Source: Nitrososphaeraceae archaeon (GTDB taxonomy: Archaea > Thermoproteota > Nitrososphaeria > Nitrososphaerales > Nitrososphaeraceae). Taken from it: 6,722 bases of DNA. Location of the stretch: positions 1 through 6,722 of the forward strand of contig JASHSN010000423.1 in the NCBI GenBank assembly GCA_030038695.1, read 5' to 3'. A program made the translations under genes and the position numbers. The notes beneath the pieces are model-generated. The model was given only the letters and a program-made list of their open reading frames with translations, was not told the origin of the DNA and ran no database searches. Of this stretch, positions 1 through 6,722 are shown in pieces (the first letter of the stretch is position 1; each line of letters begins with the position of its first letter).

Positions 1-873
1 ACCAAAATTAGAATTATATACTGTTGGATCCATTGTACCTTCGCGTATACTTCCTTCACCTAATGAATATATTGTATCGACTCTTGCGCCGTTTTCCTCG
101 CCTTGAAATCCAAATCTTTGAGTCTCAACTAATGACGCAGTAGGGTCAAAAAGTACATACCATCTATCCATTGACTCAGCGAGTTTGCTATAATCGATAA
201 CTGGCATTTGTAATAACAGAATTGTTTGCTGTGTAGCTCCTGCCTTCTTCAACGTATCCATAAAGCCAGGCATTGCCGCGTCAAGGACTCCAGACATATA
301 GTTTATTTCAATATTCTTTGAAGTCCCGGAGTTGTTATCGATATACGATAGGTTGATAGGCTGGTCAATCGTAAAAGCTCTCCAGTTGAAATCAACAAAT
401 TTATGATTTGTCTCCTGATTGTTTGAAAGCATATATCCTTGCAAACCTAAAGTAAGCATAGTTCTCTGCGCTACTATGGATTCAGTATCAGAATAATGCT
501 TTATATCTGCAATGAACTTTAGGCTGACTGTTGTTGCTTGTACATTACTATGAGCATTTGTCAAGGCCTGATTTATTCCGTCAAGGAAGGACTGCATAGC
601 TGCAGCGTTCTGTCTGTTTTGTTCCGTAGGTGATGAGGCCGCTGTTATTGTTATTCTAGCTGGACTATTTTGCAAAAGGGTTGCAATCTGACTTTTTTGT
701 GGATAATCTATCAAAACAGTGTGGATTTCCTCATAAGTAGCATTAGTAACGTCTTGATTTGGATTTAGTACTGCGGTCAAAGTTACAGCTGCAGCCAATT
801 GAGGAATACACAAGCACGATGAAACGATCACTGAGAATGATAAAATTAATATAATAGAAACACTCTGATACAT
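1..873 (-). CDS. Exported protein of unknown function, C-terminus beyond window
   Basis: An open frame of 291 codons runs from ATG at 873 to the left edge without a stop. The first 30 or so residues form a signal peptide: MYQSV, then a hydrophobic stretch (IILILSFSVIVSS) and a small-residue region ending PQLAAA, so the mature protein is probably outside the membrane. The mature part is rich in Gln, Asn, Thr and Ala, has almost no Cys, and includes VTNATYEEIHTVLIDY (residues about 42-57) and a later FGFQGEENGARVDTIYS segment (about 258-274). I recognise no catalytic motif and no family. The start is supported by a TATA box at 905-912, about 35 bases upstream, which predicts a leader of only some 10 bases. 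Two palindromic operators sit directly upstream of that TATA box, so the gene is probably regulated. Coding character is strong; function is unknown. Confidence 0.8.
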   Translation of the reverse strand, partial: MYQSVSIILILSFSVIVSSCLCIPQLAAAVTLTAVLNPNQDVTNATYEEIHTVLIDYPQKSQIATLLQNSPARITITAASSPTEQNRQNAAAMQSFLDGINQALTNAHSNVQATTVSLKFIADIKHYSDTESIVAQRTMLTLGLQGYMLSNNQETNHKFVDFNWRAFTIDQPINLSYIDNNSGTSKNIEINYMSGVLDAAMPGFMDTLKKAGATQQTILLLQMPVIDYSKLAESMDRWYVLFDPTASLVETQRFGFQGEENGARVDTIYSLGEGSIREGTMDPTVYNSNFG

Positions 874-904: not shown

Positions 905-943
905 TTATATATGTAACGTTCGTTACTATGTAATCATTGTTAC
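905..943 (-). promoter_or_regulatory. Promoter with two tandem GTAAC/GTTAC operators for the exported-protein gene
   Basis: On the minus strand a TATA box (ATATATAA, 905-912) lies about 25 bases ahead of the predicted transcription start and just before the ATG at 873. Directly upstream are two inverted repeats with 5-base arms and a 4-base spacer: GTAACGTTCGTTAC (913-926) and GTAATCATTGTTAC (930-943), 17 bases apart. The same palindrome recurs at 4594-4607 and 6261-6274, also touching a TATA box. A dimeric regulator (TetR/MarR/Lrp-like) is an inference. At this position it could repress by blocking TFB/TBP or activate from upstream. Confidence 0.65.
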
Positions 944-1022
944 AATAATAAAAACGCATAATACCCGTAATAATCTATCTATGCAACCAATATCATGTTA
1001 GGTACTATAAACGTAGTACATC

Positions 1023-1151
1023 TTATCGCATTACCAAAAGGGCGAGATTCAGTGCGCGTATTATAGAATAAGTGCAAAACCTAAGAGGATCTAAAACCAG
1101 ATAATAAACACCAGTCCAGGCAGCACAGTACTCAAAGGGACCTTTTCTCAT
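1023..1151 (-). CDS. Possible 42-residue hydrophobic small protein
   Basis: ATG at 1151 opens a 42-codon frame ending in TAA. The product starts MRKGPFEYCAAW and contains YYLVLDPLRF and IIRALNLALLVMR, with aromatic and leucine-rich stretches that could enter a membrane. An AT-rich TATA-like element (about 1178-1188) lies at a suitable distance upstream of a leaderless start. I recognise no family, and the frame is short enough to occur by chance. Confidence 0.25.
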   Translation of the reverse strand: MRKGPFEYCAAWTGVYYLVLDPLRFCTYSIIRALNLALLVMR

Positions 1152-1258
1152 GTCGTAATATTACATATCTAAACGTTAAATTTAATAAATATCTTGTGAA
1201 CAGTAATACAGATGGTTCTTGCTAGTAAAAAACGGCTACTGTTAATTATACACAGGAT

Positions 1259-1614
1259 ATGGAACATCACCTGATAGTAAGAATAAACGGGACCCTGCCA
1301 GATCTTTCGATGATGGGCAATGAAGAGTTGGAAAGAGCTGCAGAAGTAAAGAAAATTTTGAGGAACACATTCGCGGGCTTCATTTAACATTATAAAGCCT
1401 AATGAAACTTTTCAAATTGGCCCTTTTTCAGTAACACTGTACACACGTCTTAGCATCCCACGGGGAGAACTCACCGCCTGGTTCTGTTATTTATGTTGTT
1501 ATAACTGAAGACAAGAAGATCATATTTGCGTGGGATTTTCTAGACTCTCACCTTGCAGTTAGTGGAGATAGTGGAAGGTTTAAGATAACGGTTGCAAAAG
1601 AAGGTATGATCTAG
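1259..1614 (+). pseudogene. Remnant of a metallo-beta-lactamase-fold hydrolase gene
   Basis: Protein-like sequence continues through three reading frames. Frame one (ATG 1259 to TAA 1387) gives MEHHLIVRINGTLPDL and then a charged helix (GNEELERAAEVKKILRN). Frame two (about 1377-1460) gives NIIKPNETFQIGPFSVTLY. Frame three (about 1460-1614) gives SHGENSPPGSVIYVV, KKIIFAWDFL and then DSHLAVSGDSGRFKITVA before TAG. The HGENSPPGS...IIFAWDF pattern resembles the later metal-site part of the metallo-beta-lactamase fold (H..G...GS, then a strand ending in Asp). The N-terminal HxHxDH region is missing. The jump from WDFL to DSHL looks like an internal deletion, and the TAG after GMI may replace a Trp codon. 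Two frameshifts, a deletion and a nonsense codon make it non-functional. Family assignment is by recognition only. Confidence 0.5.
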
Positions 1615-1632
1615 GCTGCTAGAGGTTCCTAA

Positions 1633-1908
1633 ATATTCCGATGATGAAAACGTGCCTATTGGAATCAGTTTTCTGTAAGCCGGGATCTATACTGACTTGT
1701 AGTCACGCTCATATCTATAAGCATAGTCCAGTTCTTTTCCTGAATGGATCAAATGATAATGCTAAGCCGGGTACGTAATGAACAATAACGATTACTACTA
1801 TACATGATTTTGTTAGATAGCATAAACCTGCTAATTTATCTTCTCGGTACCGTACTTTTGACAACTACGTTTTTTGTTAGTTCCTTGACTGCGTTATGAC
1901 TATGATAC
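1633..1908. other. Non-coding gap between the hydrolase remnant and the enolase 3' end
   Basis: I see no convincing gene here. A 45-codon plus-strand frame (1641-1778, starting MMKTCLLE) exists but has no promoter or family resemblance. No clear terminator for the converging genes is visible apart from a run of six T at about 1870-1875 on the plus strand. Confidence 0.4.
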
Positions 1909-3243
1909 CTACTTCAGAAAGCCGTTAGATTTAAAAACCAGCTTAGGCAGTGATAATTCATATTTCGACTCTTCTATTTGCATGATTCTATTGTATTTGG
2001 CTGCACGCTCACCACGGGCAGGAGCACCCGACTTGATCCCGTCACTTCCAATACCGACTGCGAAATCAGCTAACCAGTCATCGGTCGTCTCACCTGACCT
2101 ATGACTAGCCACGATTGTCCAAGATTTAGAAGAAGCGGTTCTGCTGGCCTCTAGGGCTCTTGTGAGAGAGCCAACTTGGTTTACCTTGATTATGACGGAA
2201 TTTGCCGCTCCTAATTTTATACCTTCATCTATTCTAGCACTATGTGATACAAAAATATCATCACCTACTATACATGTTTTACCTGCCAATTTTGACGTTA
2301 TTTGTACAAATGAATTAGGATCATCTTCTCTAAATGGGTCTTCTATTATTTTAATTGGGTAGAGCTCGCATAGAAAGCGATAATAATCTAACAGCTCGCC
2401 TGTATCGAGGGACTTTCCATCTATATGATAATGTTCTGTATCATGATTCCAGAAATTACTTGCAGCACAATCGATTCCAAATACAACGTCGCTTCCTAAG
2501 CTGTATCCATGTTTTTCAACCGCATCAGAAATGTAGGAAAGCACAGCTTCCGTAGACTTGATTGGTGCAGGCGCAAAACCACCTTCATCACCTACATTTA
2601 CTGCTGTTTTTCCAATTCTGTTTGATAATATAATTTTAAGCTCATGATATATTTCAGAACCCATCCTGACAGCTTCACTAAAGTTTCTTGCTCCAACAGG
2701 GGCTATCATAAATTCTTGTAAGGCCAGCTCGCTTCCTGCATGCTTTCCCCCATTTACGATATTCATTAGTGGAACCGGAGTAGTCATTACATTTTTTGGG
2801 CTTTCAGTACAATTAAAAAGCTCAGAAATGTGTTCGTATAACTGGATTCCTCTTATCTTGGCAGCAGCTTTGGCACATGCCATAGATACAGCGGTTGTTG
2901 CATTTGCACCAAGTATCCCCATGTTCTCAGTACCGTCAGCTTCGGACACGAGTCCATCAAGTTCCTGTTGATTGTCACAACTTCTTCCAACAATAATTGA
3001 GGCTATCTTTTCATTAACATTAGTAACAGCCCGTAATACCCCTCTACCTAAGAATCTGCTCATGTCATTAGTATCTCTAAGCTCTATAGCTTCATGCTTA
3101 CCAGTCGATGCTCCTGATGGTGTAGATGCTGTTGCCTTAATTCCTGAATTTGTGCAAACTTCTGCTTCAACAGTTGGAGTTCCACGGGAATCAAGTATCT
3201 CCCTGGCCCTTACCGATTTGATTACACATCCATCTATTGACAT
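1909..3243 (-). CDS. eno: Enolase (phosphopyruvate hydratase)
   Basis: The product interconverts 2-phosphoglycerate and phosphoenolpyruvate in cytosolic glycolysis/gluconeogenesis, normally as an Mg-dependent dimer or octamer. From ATG 3243 it has 444 residues, a little above the usual 410-435. Visible family features in order: REILDSRGTPTVE near the N-terminus; the mobile loop SGASTGKHEA; GGKHAGSELALQEFM with substrate-binding His and Glu; SEIYHELK; GDEGGFAPAP; the metal ligands in FGIDCAAS, IEDPF and GDDIF; the signature IIKVNQVGSLT with the catalytic Lys; SHRSGETTD; and IKSGAPARGERAAKYN. All key residues appear intact. A GTG at 3261 would add six residues (MDVIGV), but the TATA box at 3279-3286 predicts transcription starting near 3257, which favours the ATG at 3243. 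No operon partner lies next to it. Confidence 0.96.
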   Translation of the reverse strand: MSIDGCVIKSVRAREILDSRGTPTVEAEVCTNSGIKATASTPSGASTGKHEAIELRDTNDMSRFLGRGVLRAVTNVNEKIASIIVGRSCDNQQELDGLVSEADGTENMGILGANATTAVSMACAKAAAKIRGIQLYEHISELFNCTESPKNVMTTPVPLMNIVNGGKHAGSELALQEFMIAPVGARNFSEAVRMGSEIYHELKIILSNRIGKTAVNVGDEGGFAPAPIKSTEAVLSYISDAVEKHGYSLGSDVVFGIDCAASNFWNHDTEHYHIDGKSLDTGELLDYYRFLCELYPIKIIEDPFREDDPNSFVQITSKLAGKTCIVGDDIFVSHSARIDEGIKLGAANSVIIKVNQVGSLTRALEASRTASSKSWTIVASHRSGETTDDWLADFAVGIGSDGIKSGAPARGERAAKYNRIMQIEESKYELSLPKLVFKSNGFLK

Positions 3244-3248
3244 AACAC

Positions 3249-3354
3249 CTATAACATCCACTGTACCCGCTAATCACTGATATAATGGTACTCTACTTTG
3301 ACTATAACATCCACTGTACCCGCTAATCACTGATATAATGGTACTGTACTTTGA
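3249..3354. repeat. 53-base tandem duplication spanning the enolase promoter
   Basis: Copy one is 3249-3301 and copy two 3302-3354. They abut exactly and differ at a single base (C at 3293, G at 3346). Each copy contains the minus-strand TATA box and the GTG candidate start codon region of enolase, and the plus-strand start ATGGTACT. The near identity points to a recent event. Confidence 0.93.
3279..3286 (-). promoter_or_regulatory. TATA box of the enolase promoter (proximal copy)
   Basis: On the minus strand the sequence ATTATATC lies about 25 bases ahead of a predicted start near 3257 and about 40 ahead of the enolase ATG at 3243. An identical box occurs 53 bases further upstream (3332-3339) because the whole region is duplicated, so enolase may have two promoters. 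Confidence 0.45.
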
Positions 3355-3553
3355 GCGGTTGTTAAAAGAGAAGGACACTAGATTTCGATGGGAATACTGT
3401 TCAATTCATACGACCTCAAAAAGGAAAAGACAATATGAGCGTTTTACTGCTCATAGAGACAAAAAACTCAGGAAAAGAGAAAGGTTAGGATTTTTTGGTT
3501 TAATCCCATTTACTCCAAAATGCAACGTCACGTCTACAACTTCACGTATTTAG
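3338..3553 (+). CDS. Possible small basic protein, unknown
   Basis: ATG at 3338, inside the second copy of the tandem duplication, opens 71 codons to TAG. The product is strongly basic (KRKRQYERF, RDKKLRKRERLGFFG) and resembles nothing I recognise. The first copy offers the same start but stops after 13 codons, so the duplication either created this N-terminus or duplicated a real one. A TATA-like CTATAACA at 3302-3309 lies about 30 bases before the ATG. It could be a real divergent gene or chance. Confidence 0.3.
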   Translation: MVLYFERLLKEKDTRFRWEYCSIHTTSKRKRQYERFTAHRDKKLRKRERLGFFGLIPFTPKCNVTSTTSRI

Positions 3554-3651
3554 CTTAGCAGTCAATTCGCAGCAAGGGACAGAGTAGTAGGTTGTAATTT
3601 GCATTTCTATCACTTGATGTTAACAATCTGAACGCAGCTTTCCTCACTTTT

Positions 3652-3725
3652 GAACAGAAAATTATTCAAATTCATTATTATGCGTAAATAACGTTTTCAA
3701 TAATTTGTGAACAGAGAATTATTCA
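3652..3725. repeat. Short imperfect direct repeat, period 57
   Basis: GAACAGAAAATTATTCA (3652-3668) recurs as GAACAGAGAATTATTCA (3709-3725), 16 of 17 bases matching. The region between is AT-rich. It might be a pair of protein-binding sites or a relic of a duplication; nothing further can be said. Confidence 0.5.
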
Positions 3726-3756
3726 CCCATAGAATAGTCACTCCTCATTGAAAGAA

Positions 3757-3920
3757 ATGGAAATACATATAACATTCGTAGTTCCAGCAGAAATGCCAGA
3801 TCTATGTAGTACCCAAAGCGCATGAATCATTACAAAGAGGTCAAGTCTCTTGCTGATAATTTCGCAAACGTATCATTCGTCTGGGATAGGATGTATGTAA
3901 GCGCAACAATAAGTCTATAA
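3757..3920 (+). pseudogene. Two overlapping fragments, probably one frame-broken gene
   Basis: ATG 3757 gives a 22-residue frame (MEIHITFVVPAEMPDL...) ending in TGA at 3823-3825. A second frame with ATG at 3822-3824, overlapping the stop as ATGA, gives 32 residues including VKSLADNFANVSFVWDRMY and ends in TAA at 3918-3920. Both pieces read like ordinary protein, so one frameshifted short gene is a simple explanation; two translationally coupled tiny ORFs is the alternative. The 3' end overlaps the last bases of the convergent CsoR-like gene. The family is not recognised. Confidence 0.35.
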
Positions 3921-4364
3921 GATATGCGAAATACTTTTCTTGAGTTCTGTCGCTGCATTATTTTTTGATCTACCAATGCTAGCTGCTTTAATGTAATGTT
4001 CAACTAGATCGTGAACCATTACCTCTACTACCCCATCCAATGCAGCCTGAACAGCAGAAATCTGTTGTATTATGTCAGATATATCTTCAGCTATCATTTT
4101 CCGAATAGACTTGACATGACCCTCGACCCTGGCTAATCTAATCTCTGCGTCGTGTTCTTTATGAAGAATCGTAGGTCTTGCATTTTTTAATACGACGCGT
4201 GATAATTTGTCTGACAACCTAATCTTTAGTTTCAATGTGTATTCGATAGCCAACTTAATAAGGATATGCCATAAATAATAAAAGCAAGATTCAAATAGTT
4301 GTAGTCTGAGCCTCAATCCTCTACCAGAGGACGTGGACTTGAATGCTACTGCTAAAATCAACAA
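3915..4364 (-). CDS. CsoR/RcnR/FrmR-family (DUF156) transcriptional regulator
   Basis: The C-terminal half is the all-helical CsoR/FrmR fold: EIRLARVEGHVKSIRKMIAE at about residues 74-93, IIQQISAVQAALDGVVEVM at about 98-116, HDLVEHYIKAA, and a tail like that of FrmR proteins. Family members are DNA-bound oligomers released by Cu, Ni/Co or formaldehyde. Here the three usual sensor ligands (Cys in helix 1-2, His and Cys in the H-x3-C pair) align with Ile, Leu and Tyr, so metal or aldehyde sensing by the standard site looks lost. Family proteins are about 90 residues; the 149-residue frame from ATG 4364 has about 70 extra N-terminal residues (hydrophobic then basic). These may be untranslated, with a TTG start near 4217 possible, or an unusual extension. 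The stop overlaps the tail of the convergent fragments at 3757-3920. Family confidence is good; start and function are uncertain. Confidence 0.75.
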   Translation of the reverse strand: MLILAVAFKSTSSGRGLRLRLQLFESCFYYLWHILIKLAIEYTLKLKIRLSDKLSRVVLKNARPTILHKEHDAEIRLARVEGHVKSIRKMIAEDISDIIQQISAVQAALDGVVEVMVHDLVEHYIKAASIGRSKNNAATELKKSISHIL

Positions 4365-4545
4365 GTGTAAAACCGCCTTTCAGTATCCAGAGTCCAAGTA
4401 AACTAGTCGTCCTAACGAAGCACAATAGTCCGAGTTCTAATAGACGAATATTTCTAACAACAGTAAAACCATTATTCAATTCGGTGATTTTCGACGGTTC
4501 GACGCGAGATAAGAGTTGGAACAGCAGATATTCATGAATAATAGT
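4321..4545 (-). other. Open frame of unclear status upstream of the CsoR-like gene
   Basis: A stop-free minus-strand frame of 74 codons with no ATG reads in a protein-like way: HEYLLFQLLSRVEPSKITE, then hydrophobic LLELGLLCFVRTTSLLGLWI and GGFTLVDFSSS, ending in TAG. It overlaps the 5' end of the CsoR-like frame by about 44 bases in another frame, so it could be a fragment of a membrane protein or the frameshifted start of the same transcript. The minus-strand operator/TATA pair at 4585-4607 lies just upstream. No family recognised. Confidence 0.2.
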
Positions 4546-4851
4546 TTAATAAGAATTGTTGTAAACTACATATCAATAATAAGCTTTATAAATGTAACTG
4601 TTGTTACAGCTTTAGTATGCGGTCCTCTAGGGGATTACGATGGGGTGTTTAGTGTGAGCATCAATTTGCCACCAGGCGTTTTAAGGAACGAAAGAATAAT
4701 AGTAGAAGAAGGACTAGACGTGGTCAAGGAAATAGAATCTGGTCGCTTAGCTGAGGATATTCGAGAAATGAATTGTGATTATGCCACTTTGTGTGCTAAA
4801 TGTTGGGTCGATATAAGGAAAAGCTCGACAATATTGAATAATGTATTCTAG
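4516..4851 (+). CDS. Unknown protein with a C-x5-C-x2-C motif; start uncertain, possibly truncated
   Basis: The frame opens at TTG 4516 (another candidate is ATG 4534) and runs to TAG 4849-4851, up to 111 residues. Residues 11-34 are hydrophobic, but they are encoded by AT-rich DNA that holds a TATA box and an operator, so they are probably promoter rather than protein; a GTG at 4645 is a plausible later start. The rest reads as real protein: LPPGVLRNERIIVEE, a charged helix VVKEIESGRLAEDIREM, then NCDYATLCAKCWVDIRK with Cys at 87, 93 and 96, which could bind a metal. The last codons lie in a tandem duplication; in another frame copy one ends KEKLDNIE and stop, hinting that the original C-terminus was lost by a frameshift near 4815. 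The family is not recognised. Confidence 0.45.
   Translation: MEQQIFMNNSLIRIVVNYISIISFINVTVVTALVCGPLGDYDGVFSVSINLPPGVLRNERIIVEEGLDVVKEIESGRLAEDIREMNCDYATLCAKCWVDIRKSSTILNNVF
4585..4607. promoter_or_regulatory. Palindromic TATA box abutting a GTAAC/GTTAC operator
   Basis: TTTATAAA (4585-4592) is followed one base later by the inverted repeat GTAACTGTTGTTAC (4594-4607). Read on the minus strand, the order operator then TATA matches the sites at 905-943 and 6261-6283, which would direct transcription toward the CsoR-like gene. Because the TATA sequence is itself palindromic it could also serve the plus strand, toward the ORF ending at 4851, with the operator at the start region. The site lies inside the longest version of that ORF. 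Confidence 0.55.
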
Positions 4852-4903
4852 GCATCATACAATGGTCGATATAAGGAAAAGCTCGATATATGCATCATAC
4901 AAT
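4806..4903. repeat. Tandem duplication with an 18-base length difference
   Basis: Copy one (4806-4863, 58 bases) and copy two (4864-4903, 40 bases) abut exactly. They share a 23-base head (4806-4828 and 4864-4886) and a 12-base tail GCATCATACAAT. The middle is 23 bases in copy one and 5 in copy two. The 58-base period shifts the reading frame by one between copies, and copy one supplies the TAG that ends the upstream ORF. Confidence 0.9.
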
Positions 4904-5103
4904 CACACAAGGATAACGAGAAGTTGTACATTTCACCTCCATAAAATAATCCATCCAGATACTATATGGTTGAATCATAGTACTATGTATGACGATACTC
5001 GCTTAAGCAAAGCTTCTGTATATGTTGGAGTCAAAAGGATATCGACAAGACTTGCCAGATTATCGATACCATTATAAAAAGAACAGGCATATCAACACAA
5101 TAA
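4904..5103 (+). other. Frame-broken, protein-like sequence ahead of the ChrB-like gene
   Basis: No continuous gene is present, but short stretches read as protein in different frames: HKIIHPDTIW and RLSKASVYVGVKR (a helix-turn-helix-like look) in one frame, and KDIDKTCQIIDTIIKRTG ending in TAA at 5101-5103 in another. The last stop lies two bases before the proposed GTG of the ChrB-like gene. It may be the decayed end of a gene that preceded it. Low confidence. Confidence 0.25.
5072..5081 (+). promoter_or_regulatory. Probable TATA box of the ChrB-like gene
   Basis: TTATAAAAAG lies about 30 bases before a GTG at 5106, the usual archaeal spacing for a start of transcription at or just before the codon. 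This supports a leaderless start at 5106 rather than the ATG at 5022. Confidence 0.4.
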
Positions 5104-5105
5104 CT

Positions 5106-5684
5106 GTGACTATCAAAAAACTCGCATCCTGGTTGGTTGTATTGTATGATGTATCCGCAGAACCTTCTAAATTCAAAGTGCGACTATGGAGGGATTTTAA
5201 GCGCATGGGAGCACTCTACCCGCAAATGTCTATCTGTGTTATACCAGACAACAAAGAGAACAGGAAAAATTTAGAGAGAATAGAAAACATGATAATGAAG
5301 GATGGCAGACTTACGAAGATTCATGGGAGAGCAATTACTGAAAATGATCAAAACCGTATTTTACATATATTTAGAGACGAACGTAACAGACAATATGATG
5401 AAATCCTTGAGGAATGCCACGAATATATAGACGAAATCAATCTCAATATCAAGAACAAAAAAACGATACAAGAGGAAGTGGAGGAGATGGAAGAGGCTTT
5501 GGATGGTTTAAAGAGATGGTTTGCCAGAATCAAATCAATAGATTGGGTCGCAAGGCCTGCTAATGCAATCAGGGTTGAAAAATCACTTTGGGAATGTCAA
5601 GATTTGCTGCACAAGTTCACTGAGCTTTCTCATCCAAAAAAAAGCAATCGTACACACTCAATATCTGATTCACTTAGAAGCTAG
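5106..5684 (+). CDS. ChrB N-terminal-domain protein (chromate-resistance regulator-like)
   Basis: The N-terminal part has the ChrB_N pattern: WLVVLYDVSAEPSKFKVRLW, then RDFKRMGALYPQMSICVIPD, close to the WLLLIY..P..PS..RV.VWR.LK.LGA.YLQ..V.VLP consensus of proteobacterial ChrB. ChrB is a chromate-sensing regulator of the ChrA efflux pump. The usual ChrB C-terminal domain is missing; instead there is a charged helical region, probably coiled coil (EECHEYIDEINLNIKNKK, EEVEEMEEALDGLKRW), and a tail with EKSLWECQDLLHKF. The protein is 192 residues from GTG 5106, chosen because a TATA box lies 30 bases upstream and homology begins at the Trp nine residues in. An ATG at 5022 would add 28 unconvincing residues. 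No chrA is visible in the window, so chromate as substrate is unproven. Confidence 0.8.
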   Translation: MTIKKLASWLVVLYDVSAEPSKFKVRLWRDFKRMGALYPQMSICVIPDNKENRKNLERIENMIMKDGRLTKIHGRAITENDQNRILHIFRDERNRQYDEILEECHEYIDEINLNIKNKKTIQEEVEEMEEALDGLKRWFARIKSIDWVARPANAIRVEKSLWECQDLLHKFTELSHPKKSNRTHSISDSLRS

Positions 5685-5692
5685 ACACGTTG

Positions 5693-5721
5693 GTGATTTG
5701 GTACCTTCTAATATAAATCAC
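5693..5721 (+). terminator. Possible hairpin after the ChrB-like gene
   Basis: GTGATTT (5693-5699) pairs with AAATCAC (5715-5721) across a 15-base loop, starting 9 bases after the stop codon. It overlaps the perfect palindrome TCACTAGTGA (5718-5727). There is no strong T-run, so it could be a weak terminator, an RNA-stability element or chance. Confidence 0.25.
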
Positions 5722-5775
5722 TAGTGACTAAATTTCATCCAGCAGATTATAGAAATTTAAAACCTATGGAAAAGC

Positions 5776-6210
5776 CTAATCAGAATATTTTAGACCAGAT
5801 TCTAACTTTCGAATTCTATCGTAGATGTTTAAATGATTGGCGTCTACTTCTGTAGTTAAATAAAGAAGAAGATCGTCTCCAAACGGCATCGTTATGCGTT
5901 TAATATTCTGCTAATACGTACCTGCTTTTCCTATCTTATCGGCAAGTTCACTTCGAATTTTCCATGAGGTCGTTGCTAGCTCTAGTGACTTTTTGCTTTC
6001 TTCATTGTTAAGCAGATTTTTTAAACCCTCACGGTGACGAGAGTACATTATCTAACCATTCTCATCACAAAGCGTCACTAACCTAATCTTCGGATCGACG
6101 TTTATGATATCTACATAATGCTGTTTTATTTTAAACACGCTAATTCTTAGCAATGAGCTCATTATAAAGCCAAATATTGCTCCCCAGATCATATGAAATA
6201 GAATTGCCAT
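5776..6210 (-). pseudogene. DUF6659-like archaeal protein gene with two internal TAG codons
   Basis: One frame of 145 codons starts at ATG 6210 and is interrupted by TAG at codons 53 (6052-6054) and 100 (5911-5913) before the final TAG at 5776-5778. The first 25 residues are hydrophobic (FHMIWGAIFGFIMSSLL), probably a membrane segment. The rest reads VDPKIRLVTLCDENG, stop, IMYSRHREGLKNLL, ESKKSLELATTSWKIRSELA, stop, NIKRITMPFGDDLLLYLTTE. That pattern resembles a Nitrososphaeria family I associate with DUF6659, in which the first stop position would normally be Glu or Lys and the second is in a slightly shortened stretch. Function of the family is unknown. Frame is preserved across both stops, so decay is recent or the stops are read through. 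The operator at 6261-6274 lies upstream. Confidence 0.55.
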
Positions 6211-6260
6211 AATGGATATATTTATGACTGATTTACTTATTTCTTCAGGTATAATAATAT

Positions 6261-6283
6261 GTAACCTTTGTTACATTTATATT
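6261..6283 (+). promoter_or_regulatory. GTAAC/GTTAC operator with TATA box, possibly divergent
   Basis: The inverted repeat GTAACCTTTGTTAC (6261-6274) is followed directly by TTTATATT (6276-6283) on the plus strand, which predicts transcription from about 6305, just before an ATG at 6309. The minus strand also has AT-rich TATA-like sequence just beyond the palindrome (about 6250-6260) that could serve the pseudogene starting at 6210. Confidence 0.6.
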
Positions 6284-6308
6284 TCAGATAAATTTCACTC
6301 AACTACGA

Positions 6309-6529: not shown

Positions 6530-6722
6530 CTCTGTTGCACAATTCACTTATTACTTCGTACTCTATCTATCCGTCTACATCTTCATAGCAACAAACATGT
6601 TATACAATGATGCTTTCATGACCAACTCCTTAGTCATGTTATGAAATTTTCTAGCATTTACATACTCACCAAACATTCTCTTGATACTAGAGAATACCGT
6701 TTCTGCCATCCACCTTTGTCCA
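6529..6722. mobile_element. IS5-like insertion sequence, one end only
   Basis: The terminal sequence GCTCTGTTGCACAATTCAC, beginning near 6529, resembles IS5-group ends (such as the IS903 type GGCTTTGTTGAA). The transposase C-terminus follows 46 bases inward on the minus strand. The other end, the matching inverted repeat and the target duplication lie outside the window, so the boundary may be off by a few bases. Confidence 0.6.
6575..6721 (-). CDS. DDE transposase, C-terminal 48 residues
   Basis: The minus-strand frame enters from the right edge and ends in TAG at 6575-6577. It reads GQRWMAETVFSSIKRMFGEY, then VNARKFHNMTKELVMKASLY and NMFVAMKM. The ETVFSSIKRMFGE block is typical of the region around the catalytic Glu of IS5/IS4-type DDE transposases, and the N/Y-rich tail with KASLYNM is common in archaeal members. 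The N-terminus and the two Asp residues lie outside the window, so activity cannot be judged. Confidence 0.85.
   Translation of the reverse strand, partial: GQRWMAETVFSSIKRMFGEYVNARKFHNMTKELVMKASLYNMFVAMKM

What the first reader, a model, noticed from the sequence alone, without database searches (positions are those of the whole stretch)
913..6274. A shared palindromic operator, GTAAYNNTNGTTAC, at three loci
Four copies are visible: 913-926, 930-943, 4594-4607 and 6261-6274. All have 5-base arms with a 4-base spacer, and all lie outside confident coding sequence. At each locus the palindrome directly abuts a TATA box in the same order (operator then TATA, within two bases). This suggests a small regulon linking the exported protein, the CsoR-like/Cys-ORF region and the right-hand locus, controlled by a dimeric regulator I cannot name. 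Known CsoR operators are GC-rich, so the local CsoR-like protein is not an obvious match.
Basis: partly seen in the sequence, partly recalled or inferred. Interest (0 to 1): 0.75.

Follow-up and report, generated by a model that had tools for sequence, protein, structure and literature searches.

The report
Palindromic operator of ChrB-type regulators
A short mirror-image DNA sign, GTAAC-four bases-GTTAC, sits in front of recurring genes in soil archaea and in front of the chrB gene in many bacteria; it is likely the landing site of the ChrB protein, a little-studied regulator that would keep those genes off until a still unknown signal arrives.

Summary
The four palindromes are real (0.01 expected by chance). 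They belong to an operator, TGTAAC-NRYN-GTTACA, that in Nitrososphaeria often lies 1 or 8 bases from a TATA box. Across 400 genomes of the class, operator-plus-TATA occurs in 16 of 22 genomes with ChrB_N and 13 of 378 without (Fisher 3e-16). In 23 named archaeal chrB loci (211 kb) the palindrome occurs 38 times with a 4-base spacer and never with twelve other spacers. On bacterial plasmids 13 of 16 stand-alone chrB genes, from Pseudomonadota, Bacillota and Actinomycetota, have it upstream with at most one mismatch; 0 of 5 long chrB genes do. Neighbouring genes change (Ehr-like complex, CrcB, HAD phosphatase, MFS); chrB stays. Main rivals: HcpR2 of the CRP/FNR family, which has the same consensus in print but no fitting protein was found, and an unknown regulator. 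Binding, repression and inducer are untested; a published N-terminal piece of a long ChrB did not work alone.

The parts
913..926 (.). operator 1, GTAACGTTCGTTAC, perfect palindrome
930..943 (.). operator 2, GTAATCATTGTTAC, one arm mismatch, 3 bases from operator 1
905..912 (-). TATA-like box (ATATATAA on the minus strand) directly downstream of operator 1
   Evidence: sequence; regex
1..873 (-). predicted target: exported-looking protein (runs off the window), no Pfam family; 97% identical copy on contig C73 (L086)
4594..4607 (.). operator 3, GTAACTGTTGTTAC, perfect palindrome
4611..4618 (+). TATA-like stretch TTTAGTAT between operator 3 and the Cys-ORF; the paralogue has TTTATTAT here
4654..4851 (+). 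predicted target: Cys-ORF, start GTG by comparison with its paralogue (51% identity, L084)
5106..5684 (+). predicted regulator: stand-alone ChrB_N (PF20229) protein, 192 aa, Cas2-like domain plus three long helices; no site with 3 or fewer mismatches in the 266 bases upstream
6261..6274 (.). operator 4, GTAACCTTTGTTAC, perfect palindrome
6276..6284 (+). TATA-like TTTATATTT beside operator 4; a second AT-rich TATA-like stretch lies on the other side (6250-6260, minus)
   Evidence: regex
6052..6210 (-). uncertain target: short ORF facing away from operator 4, no relative among the loci held

Best explanation
The palindrome GTAAC-N4-GTTAC is likely the operator of the stand-alone ChrB_N protein encoded in the same window, which is predicted to bind it as a dimer and to block transcription from the TATA box beside it. 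Shown here by sequence: the operator, its fixed 4-base spacer, its preferred distances to TATA boxes in archaea, its tie to chrB genes in archaea and bacteria, and the change of neighbouring genes from lineage to lineage. Inferred: that ChrB_N binds it; that the dimer covers the BRE/TATA region and keeps TFB and TBP off (repression rather than activation); that chrB controls itself where the site lies in its own promoter; that an inducer, not necessarily chromate, lifts the block. The likely reading part is the first helix of a Cas2-like domain with two conserved arginines, not a helix-turn-helix.
For: Co-occurrence in 400 genomes: pattern in 16 of 22 with ChrB_N, 13 of 378 without; 10 of those 13 lie in open frames of 300 or more codons. 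Perfect palindrome in the DNA fetched around chrB for 17 of 22 genomes, one mismatch for 2 more. 38 sites with spacer 4 and none with twelve other spacers in 211 kb of 23 named chrB loci. 13 of 16 bacterial stand-alone chrB genes carry it upstream, shuffled p 0.008 or less each. Genes beside the site vary while chrB stays. A long ChrB is a dimeric DNA-binding regulator of its own operon; R18A and R23A made it constitutive (PMC3817168, passages); R24 and R29 with the same spacing are conserved in short and long, archaeal and bacterial members.
Against: Over all 400 genomes the pattern is no commoner than its reversed control (29 genomes against 41, counted from the table); the signal is its concentration in ChrB_N genomes (control in 2 of 22). 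The strict match of G262 lies on another contig, inside a long open frame, and is probably chance. No site near chrB in G054, G113 and G405 (for G405 two sites lie 3.4 and 4.2 kb off). The window's own chrB has no site directly upstream. Arthrobacter Hiyo8 and the 5 long chrB genes lack it. In O. tritici the N-terminal part alone did not regulate, and the proposed repeat there is a different one. The same consensus is in print for HcpR2. Genomes and rhizobial genes are related, so the statistics overstate independence.
Confidence: 0.8

Rival explanations
1. chrB is only a member of the regulon and another regulator reads the site, for example the small ribbon-helix-helix-like protein that is divergent from chrB or from the phosphoesterase in family f10.
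For: The RHH-like gene shares a divergent operator in L073 and L075 and in nine named loci (L162, L164-L167, L169-L171, L173).
Against: It was not seen beside chrB in the Nitrosocosmicus loci, in the window or in the annotated bacterial loci, while the site is. RHH is a reading by eye; Pfam gave no such family.
Confidence: 0.1
2. The site belongs to an HcpR2-like regulator of the CRP/FNR family, whose predicted motif is GTAACnnnnGTTAC.
For: Identical consensus in PMC1274295 (passages read). cNMP-binding domains occur in 21 of 25 genomes tested.
Against: No frame holds both a cNMP-binding and a Crp-type HTH match. G290 and G110, with a site at chrB, have no cNMP-binding match at all; G084 and G354 only below cut-off. 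HTH matches are as common in five genomes without ChrB_N. Three cNMP frames of 208-260 aa are CRP-sized, so it is not fully excluded there. Bacteria were not tested.
Confidence: 0.04
3. The local CsoR-like repressor (3915-4364) is the regulator.
For: It lies in the window and a CsoR/FrmR-type gene is also near chrB in Pararhizobium.
Against: Homologues in 10 of 101 genomes; no perfect site in 23 homologue loci.
Confidence: 0.02
4. ChrB_N binds the operator but as an activator that recruits the transcription machinery to the adjacent TATA box.
For: A place just upstream of TATA is also used by archaeal activators (recalled); two fixed TATA distances exist.
Against: A long ChrB represses its operon and a site 1-2 bases from TATA overlaps the BRE position (recalled layout).
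Confidence: 0.2

Closest known systems
ChrB of Ochrobactrum tritici TnOtChr (long ChrB, chromate operon; PMC3817168)
   Same: ChrB_N domain; DNA-binding, mainly dimeric, self-regulating; two arginines near the N-terminus needed for repression (passages)
   Different: has a C-terminal chromate-sensing part that it needs; its proposed operator is an imperfect repeat with a 9-base linker; the long chrB genes fetched here lack the palindrome (0 of 5)
Stand-alone bacterial ChrB_N proteins annotated 'Chromate resistance protein ChrB'
   Same: similar size (about 180 aa) and the same palindrome upstream in 13 of 16
   Different: bacterial promoters; other neighbours (MFS, CDF, GDT1, chrA)
PaaX
   Same: Cas2-like domain; best Foldseek match to the model (8a39, E 0.013) and weak PaaX_M Pfam matches in 15 of 20 members
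   Different: PaaX has an N-terminal winged helix (recalled), the model has none; no confident fold match (0 at E 0.001)
HcpR2 (CRP/FNR family; PMC1274295)
   Same: identical predicted motif GTAACnnnnGTTAC
   Different: cNMP-type domain plus HTH protein controlling hcp; no such protein found in the archaeal genomes tested

Membership tests
ChrB_N (PF20229), stand-alone form | Pfam match over the gathering score | tested here: met
   92.9 bits against 23; all 20 aligned members match
ChrB_N (PF20229), stand-alone form | conserved W-R and R five residues before it in helix 1 | tested here: met
   W28 R29 invariant, R24 nearly
ChrB_N (PF20229), stand-alone form | binds the palindrome | not testable with these tools
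   sequence association only
long chromate-sensing ChrB | C-terminal domain after ChrB_N | tested here: not met
   192 aa, ChrB_N is the only family over cut-off; no counterpart of the long C-terminal part in alignment A2
long chromate-sensing ChrB | operon with the chromate transporter chrA | tested here: not met
   no transporter ORF in the window by Pfam on the 9 ORFs scanned
PaaX | N-terminal winged helix before the Cas2-like domain | tested here: not met
   the model starts with the first strand at residue 8
HcpR2 / CRP-FNR | cNMP-type domain and Crp-type HTH in one protein of the genome | tested here: not met
   no frame with both in 25 genomes
CsoR regulon | operator beside csoR genes | tested here: not met
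   no perfect site in 23 CsoR-homologue loci outside the window, one with one mismatch

The most novel reading that the evidence does not exclude
Stand-alone ChrB_N proteins are a cross-domain family of sequence-specific regulators that read DNA with a Cas2-like fold and no helix-turn-helix, all using one operator, TGTAAC-N4-GTTACA, in archaea and in three bacterial phyla; chrB and operator travel together as a plug-in control module while the controlled genes are exchanged.
Probability: 0.5. Interest if true: 0.75.

Novelty: new variant of a known kind. Interest (0 to 1): 0.62.

Why it matters
The operator of ChrB proteins was unsettled: the one experimental study found here proposes a repeat whose mutation did not stop binding (PMC3817168). 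The palindrome is a precise, testable operator, carries the family into archaea, proposes a regulator for Ehr-like complexes of uncultured Nitrososphaeria, and suggests that many stand-alone proteins annotated 'chromate resistance' control other genes.

Full report
OBSERVATION. GTAAYNNTNGTTAC matches at 913, 930, 4594 and 6261 and nowhere else in the window; shuffles give 0.01. The window is contig C639 of a 3.75 Mb, 679-contig, 78.5% complete draft genome. The perfect form GTAACNNNNGTTAC occurs 16 times in it against 4 for the reversed control; 11 of 16 have a TATA-like stretch 1-3 bases from the palindrome, 5 do not (C55, C97, C309, C530, C646). The five genus relatives have 2-5 sites against 1-6 control matches.

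LAYOUT. Printing flanks showed the same arrangement, near ATGTAAC-N4-GTTACATTTATA, on contigs C73, C228, C239, C305, C660 and C676 of the same genome (some with one mismatch) and in clusters of sites in other families: G100 contig C4 (5 perfect sites in 12 kb), G084 contig C24 (4 in 5 kb), G083 and G067. Genes downstream include an intact paralogue of the window's Cys-ORF (L084), a 4Fe-4S protein (L079, L081), an ABCE1/Rli1 protein (L081) and NuoH-like subunits (L082, L085) (families).

REGULATOR CANDIDATE. In an all-against-all comparison of ORFs in 14 loci the family spread over most loci was ChrB_N, in 6 of 14; the window has it at 5022-5684, likely start GTG 5106 by comparison with relatives. 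Across 400 genomes of the class GTAACNNNNGTTACNTTWA occurs in 29 and ChrB_N over its cut-off in 22 (G400 is below it). Sixteen have both; 13 of 378 without ChrB_N have the pattern, one copy each except G199 with two, and 10 of these 13 loci lie in open frames of 300 or more codons. Fisher's exact test: 2.7e-16. Against this, over all 400 genomes the reversed control is at least as common (41 genomes, counted from the table); the signal is the concentration in ChrB_N genomes, where the control matches in 2 of 22. One of the 16, G262, has its strict match far from chrB and inside a long frame, although another palindrome lies on its chrB contig. Genomes are related, so the p value overstates independence. 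Around chrB, 17 of 22 genomes show a perfect palindrome, G043 and G100 a one-mismatch site, and G405 (contig end), G054 and G113 none.

NAMED LOCI. The one scan of genome contigs gave 23 loci (Nitrosocosmicus, Nitrososphaerales and other Nitrososphaerota drafts). In their 211 kb the palindrome occurs 38 times with spacer 4 and never with spacers 0-3 and 5-12; 22 of 23 loci have a perfect site, L157 has two with one mismatch. After removal of duplicates 34 sites with full flanks remain: the base outside the arm is A in 63 of 68 flanks, spacer position 2 is R in 33 of 34 and position 3 is Y in 31 of 34, and TTTA/TATATA starts cluster at offset 1 (14 of 68 sides) and offset 8 (8 of 68); a TATA-like stretch at offset 1 is seen for 15 of 34 sites against 2.5 (maximum 9) with shuffled flanks.

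BACTERIA. tblastn found 157 and 191 plasmid records. I fetched 21, picked for diversity. In the 150 bases upstream of chrB, 13 of 16 stand-alone genes (one of them followed by a separate second ChrB piece) have the palindrome with 0 or 1 mismatch at about -25 to -100: seven Rhizobiaceae/Paracoccus, Polaromonas, Cupriavidus, Pantoea, Priestia, Arthrobacter ZXY-2 and Streptomyces. Frigidibacter and Bradyrhizobium have two mismatches in sequences that are palindromes themselves; Arthrobacter Hiyo8 has none. The 5 long genes have 2-4 mismatches. Starts are approximate where no gene was annotated. Several rhizobial genes are close relatives.

STRUCTURE. The model of the window protein (mean pLDDT 86.5) has a ferredoxin-like part (strands 8-15, 43-47, 68-75, helices 21-33, 50-62) and three long helices. 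PaaX_M matches 15 of 20 and Cas2 9 of 20 members weakly. Foldseek ranks PaaX first (E 0.013, probability 0.99), then Cas2 chains; none reaches E 0.001. Across short and long, archaeal and bacterial members W28, R29 and G35 are invariant and R24 nearly so. In O. tritici ChrB, R18A and R23A were constitutive, the protein is mainly a dimer, and neither half works alone (PMC3817168, passages). That R18/R23 equal R24/R29 is inferred from the spacing of 5; that protein was not aligned here.

TARGETS. Beside the site lie, by lineage: an Ehr-like membrane complex (Complex1_49kDa subunit without CxxC, NuoB-, NuoH-, HyfB-, HyfE- and HyfF-like proteins), metallophosphoesterase, Usp, DUF6062, MFS and NUDIX proteins; in L155 and L159 CrcB; in L156 a HAD-type hydrolase, with look-alikes in L158 and L160. 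Annotated bacterial neighbours are MFS transporters (L180, L185-L187, L189), CDF transporters (L181, L188), a GDT1-family protein (L186), chrA (L197) and mcr-5.1 (L183). The constant element is chrB.

MECHANISM. A dimer on a 14-base palindrome 1-2 bases from TATA would cover the BRE, so repression is the simplest reading; the inducer is unknown. In the window chrB itself has no site with 3 or fewer mismatches in the 266 bases upstream, so its control here would run through the 4594 promoter or be absent; a chrB fragment elsewhere in the genome (L084) has a one-mismatch site upstream.

KNOWN. No paper on an archaeal ChrB regulator was found and the palindrome string was found in one paper, as the predicted HcpR2 motif. 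The library lacks most subscription journals, so this does not prove novelty.

Noticed in passing
window 3246-3354: A stretch of about 50 bases before the enolase gene is repeated in tandem (ATAACATCCACTGTACCCGCTAATCACTGATATAATGGTACT twice).
   Followed up: no
window 4797-4887: A direct repeat (GGTCGATATAAGGAAAAGCTCGA) at the end of the Cys-ORF; the ORF is shorter than its paralogue L084 (65 against 110 aa).
   Followed up: no
window 3915-4364 and L059, L064, L067, L069, L071, L072: The genome has seven CsoR-homologue matches, some with stops inside.
   Followed up: no
window 6575-6721: End of a DDE transposase at the right edge (PF01609).
   Followed up: no
L082, L085: Two copies (76-88% identical proteins) of an Ehr-like complex in one draft genome, each with an operator upstream; large subunits without the [NiFe] CxxC motifs.
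   Followed up: partly
L183 (NZ_CP098737.1): A stand-alone chrB with a one-mismatch palindrome upstream directly precedes mcr-5.1 in this plasmid record. Described only.
   Followed up: no
alignment A1, residues 99-127 and 164: Invariant E99, E102, E103, C104, E106, E124, E127 and C164 in the archaeal helices could form a metal or redox sensing site; this is a guess.
   Followed up: no
L073 6711-8015 and window 1909-3261: Enolase lies near operator sites both in G100 and in the window (50% identity).
   Followed up: no
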